Shown one piece after another: positions 5,475 through 23,990 of a stretch of DNA of 56,590 nucleotides. The stretch is taken from contig PAAY01000007.1 in the NCBI GenBank assembly GCA_002698985.1, positions 1 to 56,590 of the forward strand, given 5' to 3'. The position numbers and the translations under genes are program-made. This stretch comes from Saprospirales bacterium (lineage in GTDB: Bacteria; Bacteroidota; Bacteroidia; Chitinophagales; Saprospiraceae). Every line of letters begins with the position of its first letter. Positions within the stretch are counted from its first letter, which is position 1. The notes beneath the pieces are model-generated. The model had not been told where the DNA came from. It ran no database searches and saw nothing but the letters and a program-made list of their open reading frames with translations.

Positions 5475-5670
5475 TGAGTGCACTGCAAAAAGTGTTTTCC
5501 TCGTCGAAAAATGTGATTTTTTCTTTTCAAAAGTCGGACGGAGTCCGACAAGATGTGGTCCCGGACAGAGTCCGGAACCAGCGTGTTTGCTGGCGCCGGA
5601 CTCTGTCCGGCAGATAAATGGTTGAAATTCCAAATGGAATTAGTCAATCGGACTTTTTGCAGTGCGCTCA
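5475..5670. repeat. TIR element, copy 1 (196 bp)
   Basis: The element is bounded by 19-bp terminal inverted repeats, TGAGTGCACTGCAAAAAGT at 5475-5493 and its complement at 5652-5670, with one mismatch. Inside are a mini-hairpin (GTCGGAC/GTCCGAC, 5533-5549) and a 15-bp perfect stem (5561-5575 with 5596-5610) capped by CCAGC...GCTGG. GGATC occurs on both flanks, possibly a 5-bp target duplication, but GGATCTGAG is also the local tandem repeat. No ORF of note is inside, so it would have to be mobilised in trans, if at all. A related element lies at 23741-23990. Confidence 0.8.
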
Positions 5671-5832
5671 GGATCTGAGCATTCTACTCCTGACAGCAAT
5701 AGGCGTACTGTCAGGAGTGGGGGCTTCACTCTCAAAGCCCACGGTGCAGGAGTTCCAAATCTTGTCCGACTTCAATCCACCTATGTTATGTGTGAAGAAA
5801 CAACTTCCTGCTATTGCCTATGAAAACGCTGC

Positions 5833-5889
5833 GGCTCGTCACGAGCTCTGCTCGTTGACGCACCTAAGCAGCGGCCTCTGGCCGCCTCC
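5833..5889 (+). repeat. Double-hairpin repeat, copy 1
   Basis: Two adjoining stem-loops: CGTCA-CGAGC closing on GCTCG-TTGACG, then GCGGCC-TCT-GGCCGC. The same 57-bp arrangement recurs at 17335-17391 (same orientation) and, inverted, at 19714-19769 and 24098-24154. Together with the TIR element and GAGGATCTGAG tract it accounts for most of the 520-bp spacer 5454-5976; the rest shows no gene. Confidence 0.8.
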
Positions 5890-5976
5890 AGGACTTGTTG
5901 CAAAGAAATCTATCTTCCAATCCCGTCCAGCTGCCTCTGTTCTTCAATTCTTCAAATCCTCAAATCCTCAACAACC

Positions 5977-6450
5977 TCATTTTCTTCTGAAAATAAGCGC
6001 CACCACGGCTGAGGTGAAAGCCCCCATTACCAGGCCCATGAGCACACTCTGGACGATGTAGCTCTTGAGGTTGAAATAGGCTTCCAGTTGCTCCTTTGGA
6101 GCAATGTTGTGCTCCACGGCATAATTGATGGCATTCTGAAAATAATCCGGGGTGATAAAGGTGTGGGTCAGCCATTGCGCCAGCGGCGCTAACAAAACAA
6201 CAATCACAGTGACCCGCATTCCGAACATGAAGCCCTGTTTCCAGGTCATCAGTCCGCCCAGTTTTTTGCGGTGCTCCACCATGCCCAGGGCATAAATGAC
6301 GACGGGAATGAAAATGAACAGGTTGGTGTATTTGGGATGGTCGGCAATCGCCACATCGTGCCAGCCCATGGCTTTTTCAAAGACCATCCAGAGCAGGGTA
6401 GCCACCGTGAAGATGATGGCCCATTTGAGTTCGGTTTTGTATTTCTGCAT
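5977..6450 (-). CDS. DUF4199 family membrane protein
   Basis: This 157-residue protein has four predicted membrane helices (about residues 8-26, 44-60, 74-94 and 133-152) and matches the Bacteroidota DUF4199 pattern: an opening KWAIIFTVATLLWMVFEK, a second helix ending in a charged HRKKLGG loop, then MTWKQGFMFGM and a long amphipathic stretch with NYAVEHN before the last helix. The family has no known function. It lies downstream of the oxidoreductase gene on the same strand; the 267-bp spacer between them is filled by an array of mini-hairpins ending 11 bases before this start. Confidence 0.88.
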   Translation of the reverse strand: MQKYKTELKWAIIFTVATLLWMVFEKAMGWHDVAIADHPKYTNLFIFIPVVIYALGMVEHRKKLGGLMTWKQGFMFGMRVTVIVVLLAPLAQWLTHTFITPDYFQNAINYAVEHNIAPKEQLEAYFNLKSYIVQSVLMGLVMGAFTSAVVALIFRRK

Positions 6451-6461
6451 TTGTCAAGATT

Positions 6462-6560
6462 GTTTATCTGCCTTCGGCAGGTTTAATCGCCTGCGGCGGG
6501 TTTAATCGCCTGCGGCGGGTTTAATCACCTTCGGTGAGTTTAATTCGCCTGCGGCGAAGT
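6462..6560 (-). repeat. Mini-hairpin array, type A (5 units)
   Basis: Five units with a period of mostly 19 bp share a GTTTAATC spacer and a hairpin of 4-6 bp with a 3-base loop: CTGCC-TTC-GGCAG, CGCC-TGC-GGCG (twice), CACC-TTC-GGTG and TTCGCC-TGC-GGCGAA. Stem sequences differ but each unit pairs fully, so the changes are compensated. It lies in the spacer upstream of the DUF4199 gene. Confidence 0.9.
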
Positions 6561-6565
6561 TTATA

Positions 6566-6717
6566 TCTAAACATGGCGAAGCCATCTAAACATGACGAAG
6601 CCATTTAAACATGACGAAGTCATCTAAACATGGCAAAGCCATTTAAACATGGCAAAGCCATTTAAACATGACGAAGTCATCTAAACACGGCAAAGCCATC
6701 TAAACACGGCGAAGCCG
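6566..6717 (-). repeat. Mini-hairpin array, type B (8 units of 19 bp)
   Basis: Eight exact 19-bp units follow the pattern TYTAAACAYGRCRAAGYCR. Each holds a 5-bp stem around a 3-base loop, such as ATGGC-GAA-GCCAT or ATGAC-GAA-GTCAT. The three units that mismatch on the plus strand (C with A) pair by G-U wobble in minus-strand RNA. The array abuts the stop codon of the oxidoreductase gene at 6718-6720, and the last unit's continuation supplies it. Confidence 0.93.
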
Positions 6718-8154
6718 TCACAAGCTCCATCCTTTGCGGTATTCCCTTTTCACCCAGGCGTTGGCGGGATCGAAGTTGGTGACTTTCATGTTGTCGCCAT
6801 CCCATTGCAGGCGGATGCGGCCGGGGTACTCGTAGGGTGCCCAGTCGCCGGGCTTTTTGCCGGGTTTGAGGCGCTTCATGTTGAAACAGCGCACGGCCAG
6901 GTTACCCATGAGCACCATTTCGGTGAAGGGGCCGGCGTAGTCGAAACTGGAAGTGGTGGGCGTACCGTGCAGGATGCCGTTGATCCAGTTCATCTGGTGG
7001 CTTTCCTTGATGCGGGGCAGGGTTGGCTCCGGCTTTTGGAAATACTTATTCACTTTCGTTGGCAAGAGGGTGGGATTGCTGCCGAAGATGCCACACATCA
7101 TTTTCCCTTTGGAACCTTCGAAGAGGATGCCACCGTCCCACTCACCGAAAGGTTCGTTGGGACCCAGCTCTTCAGGGCGTGCGGGCTGTATGCCGCCGTC
7201 GTACCAGATGATCTCCACGGGTGGCATTTCTCCCCGTTCCGGAAAATAGATGTGCACCTTGCTGGCCGGCGGGCAGGAGTCTTTGTAGTCAGCCTCGAAG
7301 AAATCGCCCGACCAGACCTGGGCAGCGCTGGCCTCGGCAGCCACCGGGTATTTTAGCCGAAGGGCCTTGAAAGGCGAGTCGAGAAAATGGCAGCCCATAT
7401 CGCCCAGTGCGCCTGTGCCGAAATCCCACCAGCCGCGCCATTTGAAGGGCAGGTAGTTGGGGTTGTAGTCCCGGTACGGAGCGGGGCCGAGCCAGAGGTC
7501 CCAGTCGAGTTCTTTGGGCACCTCGTGCTTGCCGGTGGGAGTGGGCACACCCTGCGGCCACACGGGGCGGTTGGTCCACACATGCACCTTGGTAACGTCG
7601 CCAATGATGCCGGCATCGATGATCTCCTGGGTTTCCCGGATGCCGTCCATGCTGCTGCCCTGGTTGCCCATCTGAGTCACCACCTTGTATTTGGCGGCGG
7701 CCTCGGTCAGCATGCGGGCTTCGTAAATATCGTGGGTCAGTGGTTTTTCCACATATACGTGCTTGCCCAGTTGCATGGCGGCCATGGCGGCCACGGCGTG
7801 CACGTGGTCGGGTGTGGCCACCGTCACGGCGTCTATATCTTTTTGCTTGTCCAGCATTTCCCTGAAATCCTTGTAGCGGGCAGCTTTGTCGTAGCGCTTG
7901 TAGGTATCGGCGGCGCGGCGGTCGTCCACATCGCAGAGAGCTACGATGTTCTGACTTTCCAGGGCCCGGAGTACAGAAGCTCCACGCCCGCCAACGCCGA
8001 TGCCGGCGATGTTCACCTTATCGCTTGGTGGCGTGTAGCCCCGGCCCAGCACATAGCGGGGCACAATCATAAGGCCGGTGGCGGCCAGGGTAGTTTGTTT
8101 TACGAATTTCCGGCGACCGGATTCTTTCCTGGGATGCTGGTCATTTGCTGACAT
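6718..8154 (-). CDS. Tat-exported Gfo/Idh/MocA family oxidoreductase
   Basis: The start at 8154 gives 478 residues with a twin-arginine signal (GRRKFVKQ, Arg14-Arg15, then a short hydrophobic region), typical of periplasmic members of this family. A TTG/ATG 60 bases upstream would only add residues before the signal. The NAD(P) Rossmann fold is marked by [10 protein letters not shown] (about 50-58) and CDVD at the end of strand 2; the active-site EKP motif is at 136-138 (YVEKPLTHD). The C-terminal half has the family's beta-sheet dimer domain with WDLWLGPAP and the [14 protein letters not shown] segment. Substrate is probably a sugar or inositol derivative; it cannot be specified. Its stop codon is contributed by the adjoining repeat array. 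Confidence 0.93.
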
Positions 8155-8267
8155 AATCCTGAATTTTGATGAAAAGGAGTGAACGGACGGCAAAGAATTG
8201 CCAACTTGGGGCAATTTAGAAATTGTGTTTTAGAATCCATGCCCTGACCGCAATTGCTTTTATCAAA

Positions 8268-9914
8268 ATGCCACATTCCTTTTTCCTTCGGAAAACTGCC
8301 CGACAATTCCTTGCGGTAATCTTTCTCTTTTCGTCGCAATGGCTGTGGGGACAAGAATTTTTCCTCAACGGCTCCGCCACCCAGTCCAACGACACCTGTT
8401 GGGTGCTCACCCCCGACGAACTCTGGCAGGTAGGCAGCATCTGGAACGAACAAAAGATCAACCTCAACGAATCCTTCCAGGTTTTGATGGACATGTACTT
8501 CGGCTGCCGGGATTCCGACGGCGCTGACGGTATTGTCTTTGGCTTTCAGCCGGTCAGCACTTCCGTGGGTTCACAGGGCGAAGGCATAGGCTTTCAGGGG
8601 GTGGTGCCCTCACTGGGCATCGAGTTCGACACCTGGCAGAACCCCAACCTCGGCGATCCTTTCAACGACCACCTGGCCATCGTCCGGGATGGCAACATGA
8701 ACCACAACAGCGCCACCACCCTGGCAGGCCCCGTGCAGGCCGGCAACGGCAACATCGAAGACTGCAAGTGGCACAGCCTCCGGGTCAACTGGGATGTGAG
8801 TACCCACACCCTGGAAGTATGGTTCGACTGCCAGCTCCGCCTCACCTACACCGGCGATATCGTGACCGACATCTTCGGTGGCGATCCACTGGTATTTTGG
8901 GGTTTCACGGCAGCCACCGGCGGCGCCAGCAATTTGCAACAGGTTTGTTTCAGTTACACTTCTTTCCTGGATGGTTTCGAGGATGTGGTCATTTGCCCCG
9001 GCGGGCAATTCCAACTCAAGGTGAGCGGTGGCTCGAGCTATTCGTGGTCGCCGACGACCGGACTGAGCAACCCCAACATTCCCAATCCCATCGCCAGTCC
9101 GGATACCACCACCACCTACATCGTGGATGTGCTGGATGCTTGTAACAATCCGTTTTCGGATTCCATTACCGTCTTCATCGACGGGGATACCGTCTTTTTT
9201 GATCTCGGCCCCGACACCACCATTTGCGAAGACAGTCCGCTGACCCTCGACGCCACCAGTTATGGAACCAACTCGGTGGATTACCAGTGGAACAACGGCA
9301 GCACCTCCCCCACCCTGCAAGTTTCACAGAGCGGATTTTATGCCGTCACCGTCACCATCGACCAGTACTGCGTTGCCGACGACAGGGTGTACATCGAAGT
9401 GACGCCCCTGCCCTGGCCTTTCCTCGGGGTGGATACGGTGTTGTGCCTGGAAGACACCCTGTTGCTGAATGCCAGCACCACCGGCAATCCTGACTACCTC
9501 TGGTCAACCGGCGCCACCGGACCTGAACTCACCGTTACGGAACCGGGCTTTTACCAGGTGACCGCCTCCAACCAATGCCGCGACGCCAAAGCCGGCATCA
9601 ACGTGGGCTTTGAAGATTGCCGGCAGGTCTATTTCCCCGAGGCCTTTTCTCCCAATGACGACGGCATCAACGACATCTTTTACCCGCAGGACGGCGGTGA
9701 TGTGGAACTGATTCTGGAAATGCGGATCTACAATCGCTGGGGCGGGTTGGTGTTTGAAAACCTGGACTTCCGCCCCAACGACCCCTCCTCCGGCTGGGAT
9801 GGCCGCCACAAGGGCAAGCGCCTCAACCCCGGCGTGTACACCTGGCTGGCAAGAATCCGCTTTCGTGACGGGAAAGAGGAGTGGCGCAGCGGCGCCGTGA
9901 CGCTGATCAGGTAA
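8268..9914 (+). CDS. T9SS type B secreted protein with L-type lectin-like domain
   Basis: The ATG at 8268 gives 548 residues with a signal peptide ending near WLWGQ. Residues about 30-230 resemble legume-type (L-type) lectins: GADGIVFGFQP, then GIEFDTWQN and a second acidic Asn/Asp-rich site. Three Ig/PKD-like repeats follow, each with a dPDTTIC or DTVLC opening and a YxWSxG core. The last 90 residues are the gliding-motility-type C-terminal domain (VYFPEAFSPNDDGINDIF ... NRWGGLVFE ... WDG) that serves as the type B sorting signal for T9SS. The protein is likely exported and may bind carbohydrates at the cell surface. It is convergent with the TPR gene, 3 bases away. Confidence 0.9.
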   Translation: MPHSFFLRKTARQFLAVIFLFSSQWLWGQEFFLNGSATQSNDTCWVLTPDELWQVGSIWNEQKINLNESFQVLMDMYFGCRDSDGADGIVFGFQPVSTSVGSQGEGIGFQGVVPSLGIEFDTWQNPNLGDPFNDHLAIVRDGNMNHNSATTLAGPVQAGNGNIEDCKWHSLRVNWDVSTHTLEVWFDCQLRLTYTGDIVTDIFGGDPLVFWGFTAATGGASNLQQVCFSYTSFLDGFEDVVICPGGQFQLKVSGGSSYSWSPTTGLSNPNIPNPIASPDTTTTYIVDVLDACNNPFSDSITVFIDGDTVFFDLGPDTTICEDSPLTLDATSYGTNSVDYQWNNGSTSPTLQVSQSGFYAVTVTIDQYCVADDRVYIEVTPLPWPFLGVDTVLCLEDTLLLNASTTGNPDYLWSTGATGPELTVTEPGFYQVTASNQCRDAKAGINVGFEDCRQVYFPEAFSPNDDGINDIFYPQDGGDVELILEMRIYNRWGGLVFENLDFRPNDPSSGWDGRHKGKRLNPGVYTWLARIRFRDGKEEWRSGAVTLIR

Positions 9915-9917
9915 GCC

Positions 9918-12455
9918 TCATTCCTTCTGCAAAAAAGCCCGTGCCTCCTCCACTGCCGGGTGGCTGAAGCCCAGCGCTTCCAGTTGCTGAAGGTCTCTGA
10001 GGAAGATATTTTTGAAGGTGTCATCTTTGTAATACGGCTTATTCATCCACTCCTCGTAAATGGCCTTGGCCGCTTCCAGTTTCCCCTGAAACACCAGGCT
10101 GCTGGCCAATGGTATAAACAGCCAGCTTTCCCCCGGAGCGTACTGCAGCGCCTCCTGCACCGAACTTTCCGCCTTTTCAAAATTGCCGGCAAAAGCCGCA
10201 TAGGTGCCGAGGCCACCCAGTGCCTGACCCAGCCGGAGGCTCAGGGTAGAATCCCCTTTCAGTTTACCGAAGGCAGCCCTCAGGGTATCAACGGCCAGCT
10301 GTTGCAGGGCCAGCCTTTCCTCCGGTTTTCCGGAACGGCCTGCATTTTCTTCGTAAAAATTGGCGGCAGCCAAAGCGGCCTCCCGTGTGAGGAAATCCGC
10401 ATCAGCATTTGCGAAGAAAGCCTCAAAATACCCCACATCTTTCCGGATGCTTTGAATGAGCTCTCCTTCGCCTGCGGCAATGTCCGGATGAGCGTCCATG
10501 CGGGTTTTCAGTTCCTGCCACAGCTTTTTCCCTTCGCTGCGCAATGAGGTGTCGCCCGTTGCCAGCATCCGGTTTTTGAGCAGCACCAACACATTCATGT
10601 ACGACGTCCACAATACCGGTTCGTACATTTCCGGGTTTCGGGCGGCCAGTTTTTCCCGCATGCCGATCACCTCTTCGTAAATCCGCATGGCTTCCAGGGG
10701 CTTTCCGGTTTTTTCAAATCGGACGCCCTGCAGGTTCAGGGTGGCAGCGATGAGGCCCTGGTAAGCACCGGGTTGTTGGGCTTCCAGTTCAGCGTACAGG
10801 TTCATCGCTTCGCTCAGGCAACTGTCAGCCAGCGCCCATTGGCCGTTCATCACATACAGGCGGCCGCGGTTTTGCAGGTTCCGGGCCAGGTCGGGCTGGT
10901 AGGTCAGCGGGTTGGCCTCGAAGAGCTGTTGCCAGATGGCGCCGCTTTCACGCAGCCAGTCGTCGGCGGTGGCGGCATCGGCCCAGTCGGAATACAGCAG
11001 TCCCAGGTTGCCGAGGGTGGTGGCCAGGTCGGCGTCGTACTTGCCCGGCTGTTGCGCAGCGAGTTGGCGAAGCAAAAAAAGCGACTGCCGGAAGAGGGTG
11101 TCGGCCTGGGCGGGCTGGCCGTAATCCCTGTAAACCAGGGCCAGCGCCCCCAGCGTGGAAGCAGCTTTGGCGTAGGCGCCTTCAGGGTTGTGCGCCACCA
11201 GATCCCGCCAGATGAAGATGGCCTGCTCGTAATGGGCCTGGGCCTTGCGCAGCTCACGTTGGTTGTAATAGATGTGGCCGAGGTTTTCGAGCAACATGGC
11301 CAGGTGCGGCAGGAACAATACCGAATCGGTTTTGATGAGCTCCAACTGCACCCCCAGCGCTTCTTCCATGACGGTGCGGGCCTCGGCGCTCTTGTTTTGC
11401 TTCATCAGCACCACGCCTTTGATGTTGAGCAGTCCGGCACGCTGGCGGTCGGTGCAGGGTTTGGCCAGGGCCGCCTCGCAGAGCTCCAGGGCTTTGGTAA
11501 AGCGGTTCAGATGGGTCTGAAACTGGGCCAGTTCCCAGAGGATGTCCACGTTTTCGGGGTCGTATTTCAGGGCCAGGGCGTACTGTTCTTCCGCTTCGGT
11601 GAATCGGCCTTCGAGGCTGAGCAGCCGGGCTTTGAGCAGCACCTGCTGCAGCAGTTGCTCTTTTTGTTTTTCCTGCTTGGCAATGCGGTCTGAAAGGCTA
11701 TTCAGGGCGGCTTTGTCTTCAGAGAGCGCCAGTTCAAGTTGTGCGAGGGCAGCGGCATTGTCCACGCTGTCGAGGATGGCGATGGCCCGGCTGATGTTGC
11801 CTTTCAGAAAGGCCTCGTGGGCACGGACGTAGGTGTCACCAGCATCGTCGAGGTTGACCAGCAGCAGGCGGTCAGCAATGGCCTCGCCGCGAAGCTGCTG
11901 CACCATTTGCACTTCCTCCAGCACGGCCATCAGCTGCTTTTCGTCGGCAATTTTGCGGTCGAGCTCGGCTTCCAGTCCGGCGATGATCTGGCGGCGTGTC
12001 TGCTCATCCTTTTGCAGCTGCGCCAGCCGGTCCTGCATTTGCCGCAAGGCGATGTCCTCGGCTATGCGGTAATAGGCCAGCTGGTTTTCCCGAAGGGTCT
12101 GCTCATTGCACAGCACCACCTTCAGCGGGCGGCGGCGACTGAGCACGGCGGCATTCTCCAGTTCGCGGTCGTTCACCACCACGTAGCCGGGCTTTTTTAC
12201 CTGGATGCGAACGAGGTCGCCGGCGGGCTTATCGGCAAAGACGAGGGTGAATTTCCCAGAGGCATCACTTCGAGCGGGACTGGCGCCTGTGGCCAGCACA
12301 AAGGCTCCTTCGATGTGTTTGGTGGAACCCGTCCGGGTGCGGCTGTTTTGCTCCACGACCACACCCGGCAGCCGCACATCCTGTTGCGCCAGCGAAGGAA
12401 TGGCATTGCCGAAGAGGAAAAAAAAGAAAAGACCGGTCAGGATATTTTTATTCAT
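9918..12455 (-). CDS. Secreted TPR protein with N-terminal carboxypeptidase-regulatory-like domain
   Basis: This 845-residue protein has a signal peptide of about 23 residues (ending SLAQ). Residues about 28-112 look like a carboxypeptidase-regulatory beta sandwich (VEGAFV-type, with SDASGKFTLVFADK). A coiled coil follows at about 120-190 (LAQLQKDEQTRRQIIAGLEA). The remainder, from about 205, holds many tetratricopeptide repeats, including 46-50-residue units of the form LGxxYxxxxxxxxAxxxxxxA...P. It is the last gene of a minus-strand run after the TraB and effector-associated-like genes, 70 bases downstream of the latter. Probably a periplasmic or surface scaffold; partner unknown. Confidence 0.9.
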   Translation of the reverse strand: MNKNILTGLFFFFLFGNAIPSLAQQDVRLPGVVVEQNSRTRTGSTKHIEGAFVLATGASPARSDASGKFTLVFADKPAGDLVRIQVKKPGYVVVNDRELENAAVLSRRRPLKVVLCNEQTLRENQLAYYRIAEDIALRQMQDRLAQLQKDEQTRRQIIAGLEAELDRKIADEKQLMAVLEEVQMVQQLRGEAIADRLLLVNLDDAGDTYVRAHEAFLKGNISRAIAILDSVDNAAALAQLELALSEDKAALNSLSDRIAKQEKQKEQLLQQVLLKARLLSLEGRFTEAEEQYALALKYDPENVDILWELAQFQTHLNRFTKALELCEAALAKPCTDRQRAGLLNIKGVVLMKQNKSAEARTVMEEALGVQLELIKTDSVLFLPHLAMLLENLGHIYYNQRELRKAQAHYEQAIFIWRDLVAHNPEGAYAKAASTLGALALVYRDYGQPAQADTLFRQSLFLLRQLAAQQPGKYDADLATTLGNLGLLYSDWADAATADDWLRESGAIWQQLFEANPLTYQPDLARNLQNRGRLYVMNGQWALADSCLSEAMNLYAELEAQQPGAYQGLIAATLNLQGVRFEKTGKPLEAMRIYEEVIGMREKLAARNPEMYEPVLWTSYMNVLVLLKNRMLATGDTSLRSEGKKLWQELKTRMDAHPDIAAGEGELIQSIRKDVGYFEAFFANADADFLTREAALAAANFYEENAGRSGKPEERLALQQLAVDTLRAAFGKLKGDSTLSLRLGQALGGLGTYAAFAGNFEKAESSVQEALQYAPGESWLFIPLASSLVFQGKLEAAKAIYEEWMNKPYYKDDTFKNIFLRDLQQLEALGFSHPAVEEARAFLQKE

Positions 12456-12484
12456 TGTGTTCGCTTCGCAATGGTTCCTCTACA

Positions 12485-12511
12485 TTTACTAAACCTCCAA
12501 GGTTTAGTAAA
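12485..12511 (-). promoter_or_regulatory. Perfect hairpin between two operon genes
   Basis: TTTACTAAACCT and AGGTTTAGTAAA pair over 12 bp around a 3-base loop. One further outer position is C/A on the plus strand but G-U in minus-strand RNA, which suggests the transcript is what folds. It sits 30 bases upstream of the TPR gene start. No U tract follows, so an attenuator or mRNA-processing role is as likely as termination. Confidence 0.65.
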
Positions 12512-12525
12512 CGTAAAGTGAATTC

Positions 12526-15571: not shown

Positions 15572-15610
15572 AAAAGCCCCGGAGAGCATTGCTTTCCGGG
15601 GCTTTTTTTT
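15572..15610 (+). terminator. Rho-independent terminator of trxA
   Basis: AAAAGCCCCGGA pairs with TCCGGGGCTTTT over 12 bp around a short loop, and the T tract continues (8 T in total). It is the clearest intrinsic terminator in the window. Confidence 0.93.
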
Positions 15611-15911: not shown

Positions 15912-16988
15912 TCACGCTCCATAAATCGGTCCTTCCCGGTCTCGCAGGTGGCCGCCGGAGCGTTTTCCGAAGAAGGCCTGAATTTCCGCCAGGATAGACA
16001 GGGCGATGGTGTCTGGGGTGTTGGCGCCTATGTCCAGGCCGGCGGGGCCGTGGATGCGGTCCAGGTCTTGCCGGGACAGGCTGTGGCCTTCGGCTTCCAG
16101 CTCGCTGAGCATGCGTTCTTTCCGCTTTTTGGGTCCCAGCAGTCCGATGAAAGGCACATCGGTGTCCAGTACTTTCAGCAGGTTGGCTTTGTCTGTTTTG
16201 AAATCGTGGGCCATCAGCACCACGGCCGTGCGGCCAGGATTGGGGATGGCAGGCATCTCTGTTCCGACGCTGGCCAGCCTGAACACATCCGGATGGAAAG
16301 CGCTCACCTTGCCCACGGCATCGAGCTGCCAGTCCAGCACGGCGGCCAGTTGCAGCAGGGGCAGCACATCGTAGTTGTTTCCGAAGACAATCAGATGGGT
16401 GGGAGGCAGCAGCAGTTCTGCAAAAATTTCCACCCCACCTGGAAAAGACCGACTGACAGAGCTGCCTGCGGTCAGCACCTCCCTTGCAAGGGCTTCCAGT
16501 TCGGATGCGGGCACCGGCATTTTCTTTCCGGAATAGCCCCCGTTTTCAAGGTAAATTCCTCTGGTTCCTATTGCAGCTTCACCTTCGGTAACGATGAACA
16601 GGACCGCCGGGGCATTGGCCTGAACAGCCTGCTCCAGCAAGTTCACGGGATTCCATTCATCGGCGGCATCCAGGGGTTCCAGAAGCACCCGGATGAGGCC
16701 CTTGCACCCCAGGTTGGCACCGATTTGAAAGGGGTCGTCGTCGAGGGTGTTGTAGGTGACCACTCTCGCCTCCTGCCGAAAAATGGCCTGCTGTGCTTTT
16801 CGCAAGGCATCGCCTTCCAGGCAACCGCCGCTGATGCCACCGGTCCAGTGCCCGTCATCCGTAATGAGCATCCGGGCCCCCTCCCGCCGGTAACTGGAAC
16901 CGGCCACATGCACCACCGTGGCCAGCGCCGCTTTGGTGGTGGTATCGGTCCCTTTCCTTTTCCTGATGATTCCCTTGATCTCTTTCAT
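15912..16988 (-). CDS. XdhC/CoxI family protein
   Basis: This 358-residue protein matches the XdhC family. The N-terminal XdhC domain has GSSYRREGARMLIT and GGISGGCLEGD (about residues 30-61), with the conserved Cys of the SGGCLE motif. A Rossmann-like C-terminal domain has LIVFGNNYDVLPLL (about 223), then VVLMAHDFKTDKANL and the closing PFIGLLGPKKRKERML ... IHGPAGLDIGANTPDTIALSILAEI. XdhC proteins bind molybdenum cofactor and insert it into xanthine dehydrogenase or related hydroxylases after sulfuration. No molybdenum hydroxylase gene is present in this window, so its client lies elsewhere. Confidence 0.93.
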   Translation of the reverse strand: MKEIKGIIRKRKGTDTTTKAALATVVHVAGSSYRREGARMLITDDGHWTGGISGGCLEGDALRKAQQAIFRQEARVVTYNTLDDDPFQIGANLGCKGLIRVLLEPLDAADEWNPVNLLEQAVQANAPAVLFIVTEGEAAIGTRGIYLENGGYSGKKMPVPASELEALAREVLTAGSSVSRSFPGGVEIFAELLLPPTHLIVFGNNYDVLPLLQLAAVLDWQLDAVGKVSAFHPDVFRLASVGTEMPAIPNPGRTAVVLMAHDFKTDKANLLKVLDTDVPFIGLLGPKKRKERMLSELEAEGHSLSRQDLDRIHGPAGLDIGANTPDTIALSILAEIQAFFGKRSGGHLRDREGPIYGA

Positions 16989-17048
16989 AGCTCCATTTTT
17001 GCCGCAGGCGAAAATAAGCCAATATTGGGGAGTTGAAGAACTGAGGAT

Positions 17049-17247
17049 TGAGTGCCCCGCTAGCGATCGGGGTAAAAAGTGCCCTCATTCGTTTAGAGTG
17101 GTTTAGAGAGGTTTAGAGAAGTTTAGAGAGGTTCCGCTCGGTCGCCCTAAATCTCTATAAACCAAAATTTTAGATCAAGCCAACTCCTTTCAACCAACGA
17201 CTCTCGCAGGCAACTCCAATTGAAAATGGCTTTTTGCAGTGTGCTCA
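17049..17247. repeat. TIR element, diverged copy 3 (about 199 bp)
   Basis: The right end CTTTTTGCAGTGTGCTCA (17230-17247) nearly matches the right end of copy 1. A left end is recognisable as TGAGTGC...TAAAAAGT (17049-17080), with the middle replaced by a small hairpin CCCCGCTAGCGATCGGGG. The interior is different: GTTTAGAGAG tandem units, then TCTCTATAAACC, able to form a stem. A GAGGAACTGAG tract follows on the right. The assignment as the same family rests mainly on the right end. Confidence 0.55.
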
Positions 17248-17334
17248 GGATTTGAGGAACTGAGGAACTGAGCCTAGTGCCGATATCCCGAAAGCCGATG
17301 CCGATAGCCATCGGCAGATGGATCAACAGCCTGA

Positions 17335-17391
17335 GGCTCGTCACGAGCTTTGCTCGTTGACGCACTTAAGTAGCGGCCTCCGGCCGCCTCT
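17335..17391 (+). repeat. Double-hairpin repeat, copy 2
   Basis: Same two-hairpin layout as the copy at 5833: a CGTCA-CGAGC stem closing on GCTCG-TTGACG, then GCGGCC-TCC-GGCCGC. A CCGATAGCCATCGG hairpin sits 30 bases upstream. Together with the TIR-like element this fills most of the 505-bp spacer 16989-17493; no gene is visible there. Confidence 0.8.
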
Positions 17392-17425
17392 ACATTTCAA
17401 CAATTTCAACAAGCGCACAACATCC

Positions 17426-17433
17426 TACCTTTG
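17426..17433 (+). promoter_or_regulatory. Candidate -7 box (TACCTTTG)
   Basis: TACCTTTG matches the TAnnTTTG consensus 61 bases before the ATG at 17494, and follows the double-hairpin repeat. No -33 TTG is clear. Confidence 0.45.
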
Positions 17434-17493
17434 GGGCTGTTTGAGTAAGGGTGTTTGCAGCACCTTCAATATCAGTCCTCAACCCCCATACAG

Positions 17494-19140
17494 ATGCGTT
17501 TGACCAGACTTCTTTCCGGTTTTGTTTTTTTCGTCGCAATGGCTGTGACATCGGTGCAGGCCCAGACCGAATCGCCAGCCCGAATCAATTGGGGCCCCAT
17601 CAGCCCGGAGCCCAACAACACCATGGCCACCAAAGTGGTGGGGCTCACCCCTGATGGTTACTACCTGCTTCGGCAAAAGGTGTTGCAGTCGCCTTCGGTA
17701 CGGCCACGCGCCTGGGTAGAATTTGCGACGAAAGACCTGAAAGTCACACGCTCTGAAGAACTGGATCTCAAATACAAAGGCAAACAGCGTGATTTCGAAG
17801 ACCTGATCTATTACAATGGCCAGCTTTACCTGCTGACCTCCTTCAACAACACCGCCCATAAAAAGAACTACCTGTTTTTACAGAAGGTGAGCACCCGGGG
17901 ACTGACCGCATCAAAATCGCTTAAGATGATTGCGGAGACAGAAGCCCGGAACAAGGAAGTGGAAGGCTCATTCGCCGTTGACATCTCCAAAGACAGCACC
18001 CACCTGCTGGTGTACCACGACCTGCCCTTCGAGAAGAACAACCCGGCCCGCTTCGGCTTCCATGTTTTCGACCAAAACTTTGACCTGGTGTGGGAAAAGG
18101 AGGTGATCCTACCCTACCCTGACAATCAGTTCACCGTGGAGGAATACCGGGTGGACGACCAGGGCAATGTGTTCCTGCTGGGAGTTTTGTACACCGACGA
18201 GGCCAAATTCAGACGGCGGGGAAATCCCACCTACCGTTATGTGCTGCTTTCCTACCTCAACAAAGGGGAAACCGAGGACGAAATCCAGATCGACTTGCCA
18301 AACAAATTCATCACCGACCTCACCTTCCGGGTGGGCAACGACGGCAACCTCGTTTTCGCCGGATTTTATTCCGACAAAGGTTCTTACAGCATTAAAGGCT
18401 CTTACTTCTTTCATCTCAACCCCTACGACCGCTCGATACTCAACCGCAAGCATACCCCATTCGACTTCGAGTTTCTCACCGCATTCATGCGCCAAAAAGA
18501 AAAGGTGCGGGCGCTGCAAGCCGAACAAAACAATGACCCCCGCCGCAGCCCTGAACTCTACAACTACTCCCTCGACCGCCTCATTTTGCGAAGCGACGGA
18601 GGTGCCGTACTGGTTGCCGAGCAGTTTTACATCGAGCGTGAAACTTACTACCGTGATTACTATCCGACTTACGGCTACTACCCCTATGGGTATTACAACA
18701 GCTATTACCGCAACAGCCGGGACATCGATTACCTGTACAATTACAACGACATCATCGTCGTCAACATCCGTCCCGACGGAGATCTGCAATGGACGGCCCG
18801 CATCCCCAAATGGCAGGAAACCCGCAACGACGGTGGCTATTACTCCTCCTATGCCATGAGCATCGTGCGAGACAAACTCTACTTCCTCTTCAACGATGAC
18901 GCCCGCAATTTCGACCCCAAACGCAAAGGCGACCGCATCTATAAATACACCGGCAGCAATGAAATGATGGTACTGGCAGAAATGAACCTGCAAGGCGATG
19001 TTCAAACCTATCCCGTCATTTCCGGCGATGGGGGTGTGACGCTTCGCCCTAAAATGTGCAAACAAACCGGCCTGCGGGAATTGCTCCTTTTCGGAGAGGC
19101 CAAGAGGGGATTCCGCCTTGGCAAAATGATTTTTAACTGA
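17494..19140 (+). CDS. Secreted hypothetical protein with Tyr-rich segment
   Basis: The ATG at 17494 gives 548 residues beginning with a clear signal peptide (MRLTRLLSGF ... VQAQ). The mature part has repeated blade-like strands (LIYYNGQLYLLTSF, VFLLGVLYTD, LVFAGFYSD, LYFLFNDDARNF) that suggest a beta-propeller, but I recognise no family. Around residues 400-430 lies an unusual Tyr/Gly/Asn-rich stretch (YYRDYYPTYGYYPYGYYNSY). No T9SS sorting domain is present, so a periplasmic location is likely. Its stop TGA overlaps the start ATG of the next gene (O6-methylguanine methyltransferase) by 1 base, a translational coupling with no obvious functional link. Confidence 0.88.
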   Translation: MRLTRLLSGFVFFVAMAVTSVQAQTESPARINWGPISPEPNNTMATKVVGLTPDGYYLLRQKVLQSPSVRPRAWVEFATKDLKVTRSEELDLKYKGKQRDFEDLIYYNGQLYLLTSFNNTAHKKNYLFLQKVSTRGLTASKSLKMIAETEARNKEVEGSFAVDISKDSTHLLVYHDLPFEKNNPARFGFHVFDQNFDLVWEKEVILPYPDNQFTVEEYRVDDQGNVFLLGVLYTDEAKFRRRGNPTYRYVLLSYLNKGETEDEIQIDLPNKFITDLTFRVGNDGNLVFAGFYSDKGSYSIKGSYFFHLNPYDRSILNRKHTPFDFEFLTAFMRQKEKVRALQAEQNNDPRRSPELYNYSLDRLILRSDGGAVLVAEQFYIERETYYRDYYPTYGYYPYGYYNSYYRNSRDIDYLYNYNDIIVVNIRPDGDLQWTARIPKWQETRNDGGYYSSYAMSIVRDKLYFLFNDDARNFDPKRKGDRIYKYTGSNEMMVLAEMNLQGDVQTYPVISGDGGVTLRPKMCKQTGLRELLLFGEAKRGFRLGKMIFN

Positions 19141-19625
19141 TGGAACTGGCGCACTACAATTCACCCATCGGCTGGCTGGAGCTGAGCGCCCGCAACGGCC
19201 GCCTGGTCCGGGTCCGCAAAGTGGACGACCCTGCCAGCCCTGTCTTCGCCAAAGAAGGTCTGCTGGCGGAAACCACCCGCCAACTCATCGATTACTTCAA
19301 TCGCCGCCGCAAGGATTTCGAACTCCCGCTCGACCTTTCCGACGGCACGCCATTCTACCAGTCAGTCTGGCAGGAACTGCTGAAAATTCCTTACGGCCAC
19401 ACCACTTCCTACAGTGCCATCGCCAAAACCCTCGGCCAACCCGATGCCGTGAGGGCTGTGGGCATGGCCAACAGAAACAATCCCATCGCCATCATCGTGC
19501 CCTGCCACCGGGTCATCGCCAAAAACGGCGACCTGCAAGGCTACTTCTACGGCCTCGATGTGAAAATGCAATTGCTCCAAATCGAAAACCCCATGAGCTT
19601 CGGGGAACAGGGAACACTGTTTTAG
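19140..19625 (+). CDS. Methylated-DNA--[protein]-cysteine S-methyltransferase
   Basis: This 161-residue protein is of the Ogt/MGMT type. The active site IVPCHRVI has the alkyl-accepting Cys122, followed by the conserved GDLQGYFYGLDVKMQLLQIE. Upstream, TPFYQSVWQELLKIPYGHTTSYSAIA is the DNA-binding helix-turn-helix of this family, and VRAVGMANRNNP carries the arginine finger region. It removes alkyl groups from O6-alkylguanine in a suicide reaction. The final C-terminal segment is short. The start overlaps the preceding stop by 1 base. A GAGGAACTGAG tract begins a few bases after its stop. Confidence 0.96.
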   Translation: MELAHYNSPIGWLELSARNGRLVRVRKVDDPASPVFAKEGLLAETTRQLIDYFNRRRKDFELPLDLSDGTPFYQSVWQELLKIPYGHTTSYSAIAKTLGQPDAVRAVGMANRNNPIAIIVPCHRVIAKNGDLQGYFYGLDVKMQLLQIENPMSFGEQGTLF

Positions 19626-19640
19626 GGATGAGGAACTGAG

Positions 19641-19870
19641 GAACTGAAGAATTGAGAGGAGCTAGCTGGGCGATTCTTCAATTCTTCCGCCAGCTCTTCA
19701 ATCAGCTTCTTAAAGGCGGCCAGAGGCCGCCACTCAAGTGCGTCAACGAGCGCAGCTCGTGACGAGCCCATGGAATTTATAGCAACGACTGAACTGAAGA
19801 ACTGAAGAACTGAGAGGAGCTAGCAGGTCAATTCTTCAATTCCACGATTCTTCAGTTCTTCGATTCTTCG
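19641..19870. repeat. GCTAGC-centred inverted repeats (two copies)
   Basis: Two similar hairpins: GAAGAATTGA (19646-19655) pairs with TCAATTCTTC (19678-19687), and GAAGAACTGAA (19796-19806) pairs with TTCAGTTCTTC (19851-19861). Each loop contains GAGAGGAGCTAGC. A double-hairpin repeat lies between them. A decayed relative precedes the TIR element at 23741. With the flanking GAGGAACTGA units these account for the 309-bp spacer 19626-19934, which has no gene. Confidence 0.8.
19714..19769 (-). repeat. Double-hairpin repeat, copy 3 (inverted)
   Basis: GCGGCC-AGA-GGCCGC is followed by CGTCAACGAGC-GCA-GCTCGTGACG, the reverse complement of the layout at 5833 and 17335. Confidence 0.8.
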
Positions 19871-19934
19871 ATTCCTCGATTCCTCAATCAATCGCTATTT
19901 TGCGACCACCTTTCACCGACCAACAAACCCTGAT

Positions 19935-20435
19935 ATGGCAAACGAACACAACAACTTCAGCATACGCCCGGCCACCATCGATGATGTGCCGCTGATCCTC
20001 CAGTTCATCAAAGACCTGGCGGATTACGAAAAACTCTCTGACATGGTGGTGGCTACGGAAGAACTCCTCCGGGAAACACTATTCGGGGAGCGCACCGTTG
20101 CGGAGGTGGTGATCGGGTATGAGGGAGAACAAGCGGCGGCTTTTGCCTTGTTTTTCCACAACTACTCGACCTTTTTGGCCCGGCCGGGCATTTACCTGGA
20201 AGACCTGTTTGTGAAGCCGGAATTCCGACGAAAAGGCTACGGCAAGCGCCTGCTGACCTACCTGGCCGGCCTCGCCGTGGAACGAAAATGCGGGCGCCTC
20301 GAATGGTCGGTGCTGGACTGGAACACCCCAGCCATTGATTTTTACAAGAGCCTCGGTGCCATCCCCATGGAAGAATGGACCACCTTCCGCCTCGCCGGCC
20401 AAGCCCTTGAAGAACTGGCTAGCGGGCTTAGGTGA
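19935..20435 (+). CDS. GNAT family N-acetyltransferase
   Basis: This 166-residue protein is a GNAT of the diamine/thialysine acetyltransferase type: FSIRPATIDDVPLILQFIKDLADYEKL at the N-terminus, LFFHNYSTFLARPGIYLEDLFV in the middle, the acetyl-CoA loop RRKGYGKRLL (about residues 96-105), then LEWSVLDWNTPAIDFYKSLGA with the Asn and Tyr typical of these enzymes. It probably acetylates a small amine such as a polyamine or lysine analogue; the substrate is inferred from family resemblance. A TATTTTG sequence upstream is one base short of a -7 consensus. Confidence 0.94.
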   Translation: MANEHNNFSIRPATIDDVPLILQFIKDLADYEKLSDMVVATEELLRETLFGERTVAEVVIGYEGEQAAAFALFFHNYSTFLARPGIYLEDLFVKPEFRRKGYGKRLLTYLAGLAVERKCGRLEWSVLDWNTPAIDFYKSLGAIPMEEWTTFRLAGQALEELASGLR

Positions 20436-20495
20436 GGGATGAGCCCCGATAGCCATCGGGGGAGGGATGAAAGAGCTAGCGCCTCCACAACAGAC

Positions 20496-20573
20496 AACAA
20501 CCTCCATAATCCTCATAATCCTCATAATCCTCCATAATCCTCATAATTCCGATAACCCTCATAACCCTCCAAC
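20496..20573 (+). repeat. CATAATCCTC tract immediately before a start codon
   Basis: Seven to nine degenerate units of CATAATCCTC/CATAACCCTC fill the leader of the next gene, up to 4 bases before its ATG. These are the complement of the GGATTATGG units near 15620 and 51893. There is no purine-rich ribosome-binding site. Confidence 0.85.
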
Positions 20574-23500
20574 ATGAAATTTCTCTACACCATTCTCGCC
20601 ATTCTTTCCTTCGGCCTTTCGGCCAATGCGCAATTCACAAAAGACCGGGCGGTGCCCATCTACATCACCGTGAACCCGGACACGCCCTCGGTGCATCTGG
20701 ACTGGCTCACGCCCACTGCCATTCACGATGCCACCGTTTTCCGAAGGGAAAAAGGAGAAAGCACCTGGTACATCATCGAACAGACCCAGCAAAGCATCAT
20801 TCACGAATACACGGACACGGATGTGGAAGTGGGCAAAACCTATGAATACGGCATCGAGCGGCTGGCCAACGGCATTTACGCTTATGGTTACGCCACAGTT
20901 CCGGTCATGGCTCCGGCGGAGCACAGCCGGGGCTACATCGCCGTTTTTTGCGAAGCGATGCTGGAGGACTCACTCGCCGCAGAACTCGAGCTGCTCCGTT
21001 CCGACCTCACCGGCGATGGCTGGCAGGTACTTTGGCACAGCGTCGGTCAACAGGACAGCACGGGCAGCATCAAAAGCAGCATCACCGGGGATTACAGCAG
21101 CACCAATGGCGAGCTGAAAGCGGTTTTCCTCTTCGGCGAAATTCCGGTTCCCTACTCCGGCAACTCCGCCTGGGACGGCCACGGCAACCACCAGGGCGCC
21201 TGGCCCGCCGATGTGTGGTATGGCGAACTGGACGGCAACTGGACCGATGTCAGCGTGAACAACACCACACCCAGCCGCCCGCAAAACGACAATGTGCCTG
21301 GCGACGGCAAATTCGATCAGAGTTTCCTGCCTTCGGCCGTGGAGGTGGCCGTGGGCAGGGTGGATTTTTCCAACCTTTCTGAAGCTGATTTTGGCACCAC
21401 AAGGATTGAGCTCTACCGCCGCTACCTGGATAAGAACCATCGCTGGCGCAACAAGCTGTTCACCGTTGACAACAAGGTGCTCATCGACGACAACTTCGGC
21501 TACTTCGGCGGCGAGGCCTTTGCCGCCAACGGCTGGCGCAACGGCTATCCCCTGGTGGGCGTGGACAATGTGATGGACGGCGATTTCTTTACCGCCACCG
21601 ACACGGCCAGCTTTCTCATGATCTACGGCTGTGGCGGTGGGTCCTATACCAGCGCAAACGGCGTCGGCAACAGCCTGCAATTCACCACCGACACCATCAA
21701 CGCCGTGTTTTCCATGCTCTTTGGCAGCTACCACGGCGACTGGGACTACAGCCCCAACCCCTTCATGATGAGTGCCCTGGCTTCACGGGGCGGCATTTTG
21801 AGCTGCTCATGGGCGGGCAGGCCGCATTGGTTTTACCACCCGCTGGCGGCGGGGGCCACGCTGGCAGATTGCACCCTCGCTTCGCAAAACGCCTGTTATG
21901 ACCAGGGCTATTTCAACTCTCTGGGGGCCTGTGGAGCCCATGTTGCCCTGCTGGGCGACCCCAGCCTGCGGGCGCAAATTGTGGAACCCGTCAGCGGCCT
22001 GACGGTGGCTGATGATTGCGGAACCGTAAGCTTGCAATGGGAGGCTGCCACCGCTGCCAATGCCGCAGGCTATTTCGTTTACCGAAGCGAAAACAAAGAA
22101 GGACCTTACGAGCTGCTCACACAGGAGGCCATTGCCGAAAATGAGTATTCCGACAGCCCGCCTCTAGACATTGAATACTGGTACATGGTGAAAACCGTGG
22201 CCCTGGAAAGCACGCCCAGCGGTCTCTTTTACAACACTTCTACCGGGCGCTTCATCAACGCCACGGCCCGGCCGGTGCCGGAGGCCGAACCCACTGCCAC
22301 AGCCCTTACCTGTGTCACCAATTATTCCGTTTTACAGGCCAACCCAGCACAGGAGGGTTATCTTCTGCAATGGACAGGCCCCGGAGGTTTCATGGCCACC
22401 GGCGACAGCGTCACAGCCAGCAATTTCAGTGAACCCTACCTGCTGACTGTGACCGACACCGCTTCCGGCTGCTCTTCGGAATACAGCATTGCCATACCAA
22501 CGGATTACAATTCGCCCAATGTCAACATCGGTCAGTTTTTCATGCTCACCTGCGATGTGACGGCCATCGACCTTGACTGCCCCTCCGACGACCTGGAGTG
22601 TTACATCATCAACCCCGCCGGGGATACCCTGGGCACTCCGGCCACCCTTACCGAGCCCGGTGAGTACATTTACCTCGCCGTGTTCCCCGGCAATGGCTGT
22701 TACGATGCTGACAATTTCGAGGTGGTGGTCGACACCACCCCGCCCATGCTGGAAGTGGACGGCAATCCGGAAATCATCTGCGAAAGCACGGTTTTGGAAG
22801 CCCTTCCGGGAAATATGCAGGACGCTGTGGTTTGGGATGGTCCGGGGATCAGCTCGCCCTTCTTGCTGGAGCAAACCATCGAGGTGCCAGGAACCTACAC
22901 GGTGACTTCGACCAATCCTTTGGGCTGCCAAACGGTGCTCACCATCGAAGTGACCAAACCCTTCCCAAGCCTGGTCATCGGGGCCACTTCGGAATCCGTC
23001 GATTGCTTCGGCAACATCACAGGCATCGACGTGGTGGCAAGCGGTGGTCTGCCGCCCTACAGCTGGCAGGTAACACCGGCACTGCCCATCGTTCCCGGCC
23101 AGACCTACACCATTGTACTGACGGATTCCAACGGTTGCACAGCGCAAATCAGCCAGGAGAATTCCAACCAGCCATCGGTGCCGGGTCTCGCACTCAGCTC
23201 CACCCCGGAGACGAGTGCCGGCTCGATGGATGGCACCGCTACAGCGCAGGCCACCGGCGCCAATCCTCCGTTCACCTACCTATGGTCAAACGGGCAAACC
23301 GAAGCGACGGCCACCGGACTCTCTTCCGGCACTTACACCGTCACCGTGACCGATGCCAACGGTTGCCAGGCTGTTGGAAGCGTCGAGGTGGATTTACTCA
23401 ACAGCACTTCCACCCTCCCCGGTTTGCTTTCCTTCGGCCTGCGGCCAAACCCGTCGTCAGGCACCTTTACAGCCAGTCTCAGCCTCAACGAACCGCTGTC

Positions 23501-23678
23501 CGTAAACCTTGACATCCTCGACAGCGATGGAAAGGTGGTGCACCGGGCCGGCACAAAAACCGGTCTCGAACTGAGCTGGAAGGTGGAACTGCCCCCTCTC
23601 GCCAACGGAACCTACTGGTGCCGGTGGAGCAGCAACGGAAAGGTTTTGACGAGGAAAATCTTATTTGTGAGGAACTGA
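20574..23678 (+). CDS. T9SS type A secreted protein with SprB repeats; possible C25-like peptidase
   Basis: This 1034-residue protein has a signal peptide (20 residues, ending ANAQ). An Ig/FnIII-like domain covers about 20-110. Residues about 120-470 form a large domain with VFLFGEIPVPYSGN, FLMIYGCGGG, GSYHGDWD and, 23 residues after that His, GILSCSWAG; a His followed by a Cys in such contexts recalls gingipain-type (C25) peptidases, but the match is distant. Then come Ig-like modules, two SprB-type repeats (GGLPPYSW..., then PPFTYLWSNGQTEATATGL ... VTDANGCQ), and a T9SS type A sorting domain over the last 75 residues (LRPNPSSGTFTASLSL ... LANGTYWCRW). The last two codons and stop come from a GAGGAACTGA repeat. 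Confidence 0.9.
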   Translation: MKFLYTILAILSFGLSANAQFTKDRAVPIYITVNPDTPSVHLDWLTPTAIHDATVFRREKGESTWYIIEQTQQSIIHEYTDTDVEVGKTYEYGIERLANGIYAYGYATVPVMAPAEHSRGYIAVFCEAMLEDSLAAELELLRSDLTGDGWQVLWHSVGQQDSTGSIKSSITGDYSSTNGELKAVFLFGEIPVPYSGNSAWDGHGNHQGAWPADVWYGELDGNWTDVSVNNTTPSRPQNDNVPGDGKFDQSFLPSAVEVAVGRVDFSNLSEADFGTTRIELYRRYLDKNHRWRNKLFTVDNKVLIDDNFGYFGGEAFAANGWRNGYPLVGVDNVMDGDFFTATDTASFLMIYGCGGGSYTSANGVGNSLQFTTDTINAVFSMLFGSYHGDWDYSPNPFMMSALASRGGILSCSWAGRPHWFYHPLAAGATLADCTLASQNACYDQGYFNSLGACGAHVALLGDPSLRAQIVEPVSGLTVADDCGTVSLQWEAATAANAAGYFVYRSENKEGPYELLTQEAIAENEYSDSPPLDIEYWYMVKTVALESTPSGLFYNTSTGRFINATARPVPEAEPTATALTCVTNYSVLQANPAQEGYLLQWTGPGGFMATGDSVTASNFSEPYLLTVTDTASGCSSEYSIAIPTDYNSPNVNIGQFFMLTCDVTAIDLDCPSDDLECYIINPAGDTLGTPATLTEPGEYIYLAVFPGNGCYDADNFEVVVDTTPPMLEVDGNPEIICESTVLEALPGNMQDAVVWDGPGISSPFLLEQTIEVPGTYTVTSTNPLGCQTVLTIEVTKPFPSLVIGATSESVDCFGNITGIDVVASGGLPPYSWQVTPALPIVPGQTYTIVLTDSNGCTAQISQENSNQPSVPGLALSSTPETSAGSMDGTATAQATGANPPFTYLWSNGQTEATATGLSSGTYTVTVTDANGCQAVGSVEVDLLNSTSTLPGLLSFGLRPNPSSGTFTASLSLNEPLSVNLDILDSDGKVVHRAGTKTGLELSWKVELPPLANGTYWCRWSSNGKVLTRKILFVRN

Positions 23679-23740
23679 GGATTTGAGGAACTGAGGATTT
23701 GAGGAAATGAGAGGGGCTAGCAGAGCGATTCCTCGATTCC

Positions 23741-23990
23741 TGAGCGCACTGCAAAAAGTGTTATCCTTATCGATAAGATGTTATTTCTTCTGAACAAAAG
23801 TCGGACAGAGTCCGACAAGATGTGGTCCCGGACGTCCCGAAGAAATTTCGGGAGGAACCAGCGTGTTTGCTGGCGCCTCCCGAAATTTTTCGGGACGTCC
23901 GGTGCCTCTTCAAGCCGGACTCCGTCCGGCAGATAAAAGATTCAAAATTCCCATTGGAATAAATGAATCGGACTTTTTACAGTGGACTCA
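23741..23990. repeat. TIR element, copy 2 (250 bp)
   Basis: The left end TGAGCGCACTGCAAAAAGT (23741-23759) and right end 23972-23990 (3 mismatches to its complement) match copy 1. The GTCGGAC-AGA-GTCCGAC mini-hairpin and the apical CCAGC-GTGTTT-GCTGG loop are conserved exactly, but the long stem between them is a different sequence: 23830-23855 pairs with 23876-23900 (GGACGTCCCGAA... with ...TTCGGGACGTCC), one base short of perfect. Preceding GAGGAACTGAGGATTTGAGG units begin at the upstream stop codon. Confidence 0.85.

What the first reader, a model, noticed from the sequence alone, without database searches (positions are those of the whole stretch)
5475..23990. Intergenic elements with 19-bp terminal inverted repeats and exchanged hairpin stems
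Copies at 5475-5670 and 23741-23990 share TIRs (TGAGYGCACTGCAAAAAGT), a GTCGGAC mini-hairpin and an identical apical loop (CCAGCGTGTTTGCTGG), yet the long stem below the loop is unrelated in sequence: a 15-bp GGACAGAGTCC-type stem in one and a 25-26-bp stem built on GTCCCGAA in the other. The pairing is kept while the sequence is replaced, so structure seems to be what is maintained. This fits a non-autonomous mobile element or a structured RNA whose stem can be swapped. I know no described family of this form.
Basis: seen in the sequence. Interest (0 to 1): 0.82.

Follow-up and report, generated by a model that had tools for sequence, protein, structure and literature searches.

The report
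Miniature transposon with swappable hairpin inserts
A family of short, gene-free jumping DNA elements in a Saprospiraceae bacterium and its close relative carries tiny palindromes that are repeatedly exchanged at fixed positions, so apparently conserved pairing need not mean a functional RNA.

Summary
Observation confirmed: both window copies have the stated terminal inverted repeats (TIRs), mini-hairpin, identical apical loop and unrelated stems. A third element (17049-17247) was missed. The TIR core has 66 hits in the host genome (reversed control 1), the full TIR 84 in a sister species. Of 21 elements with clean flanks, 12 have a 4-bp duplication (control 4%). The sister lacks the element at both window sites. 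They are miniature transposons (MITEs) with several interiors. The sister also holds a multi-copy element with the same ends, interior lost at contig breaks: a candidate parent, not shown to encode a transposase. The 'exchanged stem' is two slots, each holding its own palindrome. Of 48 copies from two species, 34 have matching slots and 14 do not, so long-stem pairing is not obligatory. The short palindrome is nearly confined to the two species that carry the element; the long one (TCCCGA...TCGGGA) belongs to a micro-palindrome family spread through the genus (128 here, 627 in the sister), also found in TIRs and tandem arrays. Slot states change at least 16 and 13 times on the backbone tree. 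Recurrent cassette exchange explains this better than selection on one RNA. New variant of known kinds (MITE plus very small palindromic repeat).

The parts
5475..5670 (+). HP-type MITE, copy 1 (196 bp), both slots short palindrome
   Evidence: flanked by GGATC on both sides (inside an 8-bp array)
5475..5493 (+). left TIR
5652..5670 (-). right TIR
5533..5549 (+). GTCGGAC mini-hairpin
5561..5575 (+). left slot module CCGGAC[AGAGTCC]GG (short, self-complementary)
5578..5593 (+). apical hairpin CCAGCGTGTTTGCTGG
5596..5610 (+). right slot module (reverse complement of left module)
17049..17247 (.). third TIR-bounded element (type c interior); left TIR has ACT replaced by CCCGCTAGCGATCGGG; right TIR 17229-17247
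   Evidence: by comparison
23741..23990 (+). HP-type MITE, copy 2 (250 bp), both slots long palindrome
23741..23759 (+). left TIR
23972..23990 (-). right TIR (2 mismatches)
23800..23816 (+). GTCGGAC mini-hairpin
23834..23853 (+). left slot, long palindrome GTCCCGAAGAAATTTCGGGA
23858..23873 (+). apical hairpin
23878..23896 (+). right slot, long palindrome TCCCGAAATTTTTCGGGAC
23915..23929 (+). third short hairpin CCGGACTCCGTCCGG, absent from copy 1
5443..5474 (+). 8-bp tandem array (GAGGATYT) in which copy 1 sits

Best explanation
The elements are MITEs: non-coding DNA transposons of about 110-680 bp with a 19-bp TIR (TGAGNNCACTGCAAAAAGT) and a 4-bp (sometimes 5-bp) target duplication, moved in trans by a transposase that recognises the TIR. 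The transposase is inferred; a candidate parent is seen only by its two TIR-bounded ends in the sister species. Several interiors share the TIR; the finding's is the HP type. Inside HP, two symmetrical slots (CCGGAC[...]GG and its reverse complement) flank an apical hairpin. Each slot holds one self-complementary module: a short one (NGAGTCC) that looks native to the element, or an 18-20-bp one of a genus-wide micro-palindrome family (TCCCGA...TCGGGA). Slot contents have been replaced repeatedly, often on one side only. Inferred: palindromes enter or overwrite a slot, then spread between arms and between copies by gene conversion or replicative template switching. That can make arms look co-varied without selection for a long stem.
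For: Copies: 66 hits to the TIR 14-mer in G000 with up to 1 mismatch, reversed control 1; 84 TIR hits in sister G003. TSD: 12 of 21 clean-flank elements have a 4-bp and 3 of 21 a 5-bp duplication; shuffled flanks give 4.0% and 0.8%, maxima of 1000 shuffles 23.8% and 9.5%. Absent sites: the G003 orthologues of both window sites hold no TIR with up to 4 substitutions. Candidate parent: 4 copies of end A and 4 of end B in G003, each bounded by the TIR with different outer flanks and each within 17 bp of, or at, a contig end; end B shares 31 bp with one G003 HP end (L132). Slots: 48 copies SS 15, SL 12, LS 2, LL 19; in RNA folds 0 of 14 mixed and 34 of 34 matched copies have 10 or more cross-arm pairs. 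Short module: 54 and 154 hits in G000 and G003, at most 6 in each of 19 others, reversed controls up to 4. Long module abundant in genus members that lack the TIR in number. Seventh stem pair of 147 micro-palindromes: AT 83, CG 32, GC 31, TT 1. HP copies of the two species form separate groups, yet slot states need at least 16 and 13 changes.
Against: The interior of the presumed parent is missing; its known edges are too short to show a gene, its two ends may belong to different elements, and neither was found in G000. Window copy 2 has no 4- or 5-bp duplication; 9 of 21 clean-flank elements lack an exact 4-bp one. In G003 left and right slots are associated (29 matched, 7 mixed), so coupling or selection is not excluded. 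With DNA parameters 1 of 14 mixed copies keeps 10 or more cross-arm pairs and 3 of 34 matched ones do not. How a palindrome enters a slot is not shown. Flanks of the micro-palindromes are no more complementary than shuffled flanks (0.69 against 0.95 pairs), so a general 'hairpins insert into hairpin loops' rule is not supported.
Confidence: 0.7

Rival explanations
1. Two old subfamilies (short-slot and long-slot) and ordinary homologous recombination between copies; the long palindromes entered rarely and nothing is mobile at the palindrome level.
For: The commonest left module TCCCGAAGAAATTTCGGGA is shared by both species; one right module (TCCCGAGATGGACTCGGGA) was seen only in HP copies (9 of 9 in the sampled loci); crossover in the conserved apical hairpin would give mixed copies.
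Against: Right slots hold several different long palindromes, and two of these (TCCCGAAATTTCTTCGGGA, TCCCGAAATCCTTCGGGA) also occur in TIR slots and elsewhere in the sampled loci. Palindromes of the same kind replace the TIR triplet ACT in elements of different interior.
Confidence: 0.3
2. Replicative template switching rewrites one arm from the other (quasi-palindrome correction), producing compensatory stem changes without selection.
For: Mechanism described in PMC8794818 (abstract and opening read). Arms are inverted copies in the same context; on the tree left and right tend to change the same way (3.8 against 0.6 of 6 pairs, not significant).
Against: It explains arms becoming equal, not the arrival of a palindrome known from elsewhere, nor 14 of 48 copies with unequal arm classes; none of the 19 LL copies has fully identical arms.
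Confidence: 0.2
3. A structured RNA or bidirectional terminator selected for its long stem.
For: Very strong folding (z -10.8, -12.3); both window copies lie between convergent long ORFs of the mechanical list; 34 of 48 copies keep matching arms.
Against: 14 of 48 copies lose the long stem; no Rfam match in 5000-24500; no terminator-like or promoter-like site in 5400-6000 (copy 2 not scanned); several interiors share only the TIR.
Confidence: 0.07
4. REP/BIME-like element moved by a single-strand (Y1, RAYT-type) transposase that recognises the hairpins.
For: Short palindromes in intergenic clusters; TIR-flanked RAYT-like genes have been described (PMC3733652, passages).
Against: 4-bp target duplications and exact TIR boundaries point to double-strand transposition (established knowledge of DDE elements). 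A RAYT gene was not searched for by profile.
Confidence: 0.05

Closest known systems
IS-derived MITEs of Bacteroidota, e.g. the IS982-derived MITE of Cardinium (PMC9769881, abstract read)
   Same: short, non-coding, many copies; a fuller multi-copy element with the same ends is present in the sister
   Different: parent transposase not read here; several interiors on one TIR; internal and terminal slots that exchange palindromes
REP and CGTC-tagged palindromic repeats (PMC3733652, passages read)
   Same: small palindromes; families with alternative complementary stem residues
   Different: units here are 16-20 bp, and those tabulated carry no GTAG/CGTC tag that I could see; they sit inside transposons, TIRs and arrays
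Very small mobile repeated elements of cyanobacteria (Elhai et al. 2008; seen only as a reference in PMC4390886; content recalled)
   Same: very short repeats that appear inserted in other repeats
   Different: other phylum; here palindromes exchanged at fixed slots
Mobile palindromes of fungal mitochondria (PMC7218506, abstract read) and hairpin repeats of sponge mitochondria (PMC2800124, search listing only)
   Same: optional hairpin repeats in related genomes
   Different: organelles; no TIR transposon as carrier

Membership tests
MITE | terminal inverted repeats at both ends | tested here: met
   (93 distinct TIR-bounded elements up to 700 bp in the fetched loci)
MITE | short target-site duplication | tested here: met
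   12 of 21 with 4 bp, 3 of 21 with 5 bp, controls 4.0% and 0.8%
MITE | multi-copy and dispersed, no transposase gene inside | tested here: met
   the paired elements printed are short and non-coding by eye. The inward side of 69 unpaired TIR matches was translated but not profile-searched
MITE | autonomous parent with the same ends | tested here: inconclusive
   multi-copy TIR-bounded ends A and B in G003; interior not in the assembly, coding content not shown
MITE | element absent at orthologous sites | tested here: met
   both window sites lack it in G003; not base-exact because the arrays vary, and at site 1 the contig ends 161 bp after the gene
REP / RAYT element | GTAG or CGTC tag at the palindrome | tested here: inconclusive
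   none seen by eye in the units; no formal test
REP / RAYT element | insertion without target duplication (recalled for Y1 transposases) | tested here: not met
   for the TIR elements
Known structured RNA (Rfam) | match at gathering score | tested here: not met
   window 5000-24500
Very small mobile repeated elements | units insert into other sequence leaving the parent site recognisable | tested here: inconclusive
   3-bp direct repeats at 15.3% of 118 and 23.3% of 30 units, controls 2.6% and 5.8%; in tandem arrays replacement of about 5 bp would look the same

The most novel reading that the evidence does not exclude
The 16-20-bp palindromes are a mobile class in their own right: hairpin cassettes that replace small modules at fixed positions, including the ACT triplet inside transposon ends, and so are carried round the genome by MITEs while spreading between MITE types. 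Two elements of different interior (L288 type c, L290 HP) carry the identical 54-bp nested palindrome in the TIR, and a type-d element (L276) a very similar one.
Probability: 0.35. Interest if true: 0.72.

Novelty: new variant of a known kind. Interest (0 to 1): 0.55.

Why it matters
Compensatory stem changes are commonly read as proof of a functional RNA. Here is a repeat with tens of copies in two species in which matched and unmatched arms coexist and stems are swapped as modules, so cassette exchange can be told apart from selection. It also gives a tractable case of repeats of 20 bp or less that may themselves be mobile.

Tried and rejected
ISAs1-like transposase (family name recalled, no profile run) beside a TIR in L020 as autonomous partner: rejected, its own inverted ends show that it is nested in a type-d element. 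TIR in viral contigs: 2 hits, neither with an inverted partner in its contig at up to 5 substitutions. Plasmids: no match to copy 1. Exact TIR in a class sample: 1 of 395 genomes, the own one; GAGNNCACTGCAAAAAGT in a family sample: 4 of 248; relatives with up to 1 mismatch: 7 of 60, of which three (G007, G014, G038) lie in what looks by eye like coding sequence. The weak G459 hit to end A is in an ordinary gene context. A rule that palindromes insert into loops of other palindromes: flank complementarity is below, not above, shuffled partners. Independent-pairs test for coupled arms: not significant; the tree has one very long row (L097) and only 6 starred of 45 inner branches.

Rows dropped: searches count only copies with both slots readable (48); truncated copies such as L017, L027, L034, L035 and L049 are left out. 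One search prints 24 TIR pairs, one of which encloses another. One search scored 40 of 88 candidates. One search leaves 72 array-flanked elements out of the TSD test (4-bp match 54% there, without a control). Of the 43 palindrome-ended TIR hits, 30 were read: 29 are TIR ends (one with GGAG for TGAG) and one, L273, has no TGAG.
Full report
CHECK. The two copies are as described. TIR matches in the window: 5, against 0.04 expected. The fifth belongs to a third element, 17049-17247, whose left TIR is split by a palindrome. Both main copies fold much better than shuffles.

HOW MANY. The TIR core GCACTGCAAAAAGT with up to one mismatch has 66 hits in the host genome and 1 for the reversed control. 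Twenty-four TIR pairs were printed, one enclosing another, with at least four kinds of interior by eye: HP (the finding), b (CTGACAGCACTCGAAGTGCTGTCAG), c (GTTTAGAGAGGTT) and d (CCCCCCTCGAGGGGGG); a fifth (e) is in the sister. Blast of copy 1 gives 33 matching stretches in the own genome, 40 of 88 candidates scored. Of 60 relatives, only G000 and G003 have the TIR in number, 60 and 84 hits; five others have one each. G003 is of the same genus; its contig lengths equal those of Saprospiraceae MAG JALWSS. Wider searches: 1 of 395 genomes of a class sample, 4 of 248 of a family sample. G018 and G454, of other genera, each hold one paired element with another interior.

TRANSPOSITION. Of 93 distinct TIR-bounded elements in the fetched loci, 21 have flanks outside the 8-bp arrays: 12 carry an exact 4-bp and 3 a 5-bp direct repeat, against 4.0% and 0.8% with shuffled partners. 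Copy 1 has GGATC on both sides; copy 2 has no such repeat. In G003 the orthologous places of both window sites carry arrays and micro-palindromes but no TIR. At site 1 the G003 contig ends 161 bp after the gene; site 2 is spanned into the next gene. Conversely G003 has a 109-bp TIR element flanked by ACCC on both sides (C94:425-533) between places that correspond to window 24661 and 24712, where the window has none.

CANDIDATE PARENT. The ISAs1-like gene in L020 has its own ends and is nested. No TIR pair up to 3 kb among the loci I examined encloses a transposase that I could see. In G003, however, four contig ends carry the TIR followed by one sequence (end A) and four carry the TIR followed by another (end B), with different outer flanks. 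End A has an ATG frame open for its last 32 bases only; end B has a stop in each of two frames; neither is evidence of a gene. End B begins TGAGTCCACTGCAAAAACCCCTATTTCATTA, as does one G003 HP end (L132). I read this as a multi-copy insertion sequence collapsed by the assembler and the likely parent of the G003 MITEs. That A and B are two ends of one element is inferred, and the transposase family is open. Neither end is found in G000.

THE STEM. In 48 copies with both slots readable (12 G000, 36 G003) the left/right classes are SS 15, SL 12, LS 2, LL 19. With RNA parameters 0 of 14 mixed and 34 of 34 matched copies have 10 or more cross-arm pairs; with DNA parameters 1 of 14 and 31 of 34. Over all 48 the classes are associated (Fisher p 0.0019, ignoring relatedness); G000 has 5 matched and 7 mixed, G003 29 and 7. 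Within SS copies the variable loop base does not follow the other arm: 4 A-T, 2 G-C, 3 G-T, 6 non-pairing. None of the 19 LL copies has fully identical arms. So the constant feature is a self-complementary module per slot. On a tree of the backbone without the slots the two species separate, while left and right states need at least 16 and 13 changes; with few firm branches this is a rough count.

WHERE THE MODULES COME FROM. The short module CGGACNGAGTCCG has 54 and 154 hits in G000 and G003 and at most 6 in each of 19 other genomes, reversed controls up to 4. The long type TCCCGAN4-7TCGGGA is found 128 times in G000, 627 in G003, 206 in G010, 1 in G009 and 7-85 in the other ten genomes of the genus, with controls 0-3. 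In 147 distinct units of the fetched loci the seventh pair is A-T 83, C-G 32, G-C 31, T-T 1. A palindrome ending TCGGGGCAAAAAG has 20 and 23 hits in G000 and G003 (controls 0 and 1); of 30 contexts read, 29 are TIR ends with the palindrome in or next to the place of ACT, in c, d, e and HP elements. In arrays, units are often flanked by 3-bp direct repeats, which fits insertion with duplication or replacement of about 5 bp.

READING. MITE: strong. Parent insertion sequence: plausible for G003. Palindrome exchange: shown as a pattern; mechanism inferred (conversion between copies, template switching as in PMC8794818, or true mobility of the palindromes). Selection for one RNA structure: disfavoured, not excluded in G003.

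PRINT. A search for Saprospir with inverted repeat, palindromic and intergenic gave 0 papers. A search with MITE and REP words gave 724 papers with two or more terms, 10 listed, none on such a family by title; the one listed paper that names Saprospiraceae (PMC12542641, passages read) does so only in a community list. I found no description of this family in those searches.

Noticed in passing
window 5820-5888, 17322-17390, 19709-19782, 24094-24167: A 69-74-nt repeat with two hairpins (GGCGGCC-AGA-GGCCGCC and CAACGAGC-NNN-GCTCGTGACG) occurs four times, three of them 75-150 bp beyond one of the three TIR elements. Its CGTC/GACG ends recall CGTC-tagged repeats.
   Followed up: partly
window 6546-6735: 19-bp tandem array whose units form CATGGC-GAA-GCCAT or CATGAC-GAA-GTCAT hairpins: the stem changes on both sides between units.
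   Followed up: no
L020 (G000:C49:1-1237): ISAs1-like element (name recalled) with its own inverted ends nested in a type-d element; its transposase frame is broken.
   Followed up: partly
L179, L163, L177 against L161 (G003): Type-e elements with and without inserted palindromes at two places, one with a palindrome inside a palindrome.
   Followed up: partly
L131 (G003:C94:425-533): 109-bp TIR element with ACCC duplication in the sister at a place where the window (about 24661-24712) has none: the reverse of the window's own insertions.
   Followed up: partly
window 56142-56287 and 56445-56590: 146-bp direct repeat, 96% identical, at the window end.
   Followed up: no
window 5443-5474, 23661-23720: Variable 8-bp GAGGA-type arrays in which most of the examined elements sit (72 of 93 array-flanked); similar arrays are hit in genus members without the TIR family in number.
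   Followed up: partly
L027: ORF fragment with HSDRGSQYCSDIYTALL near a truncated HP copy looks like an IS3-type transposase (recalled motif).
   Followed up: no
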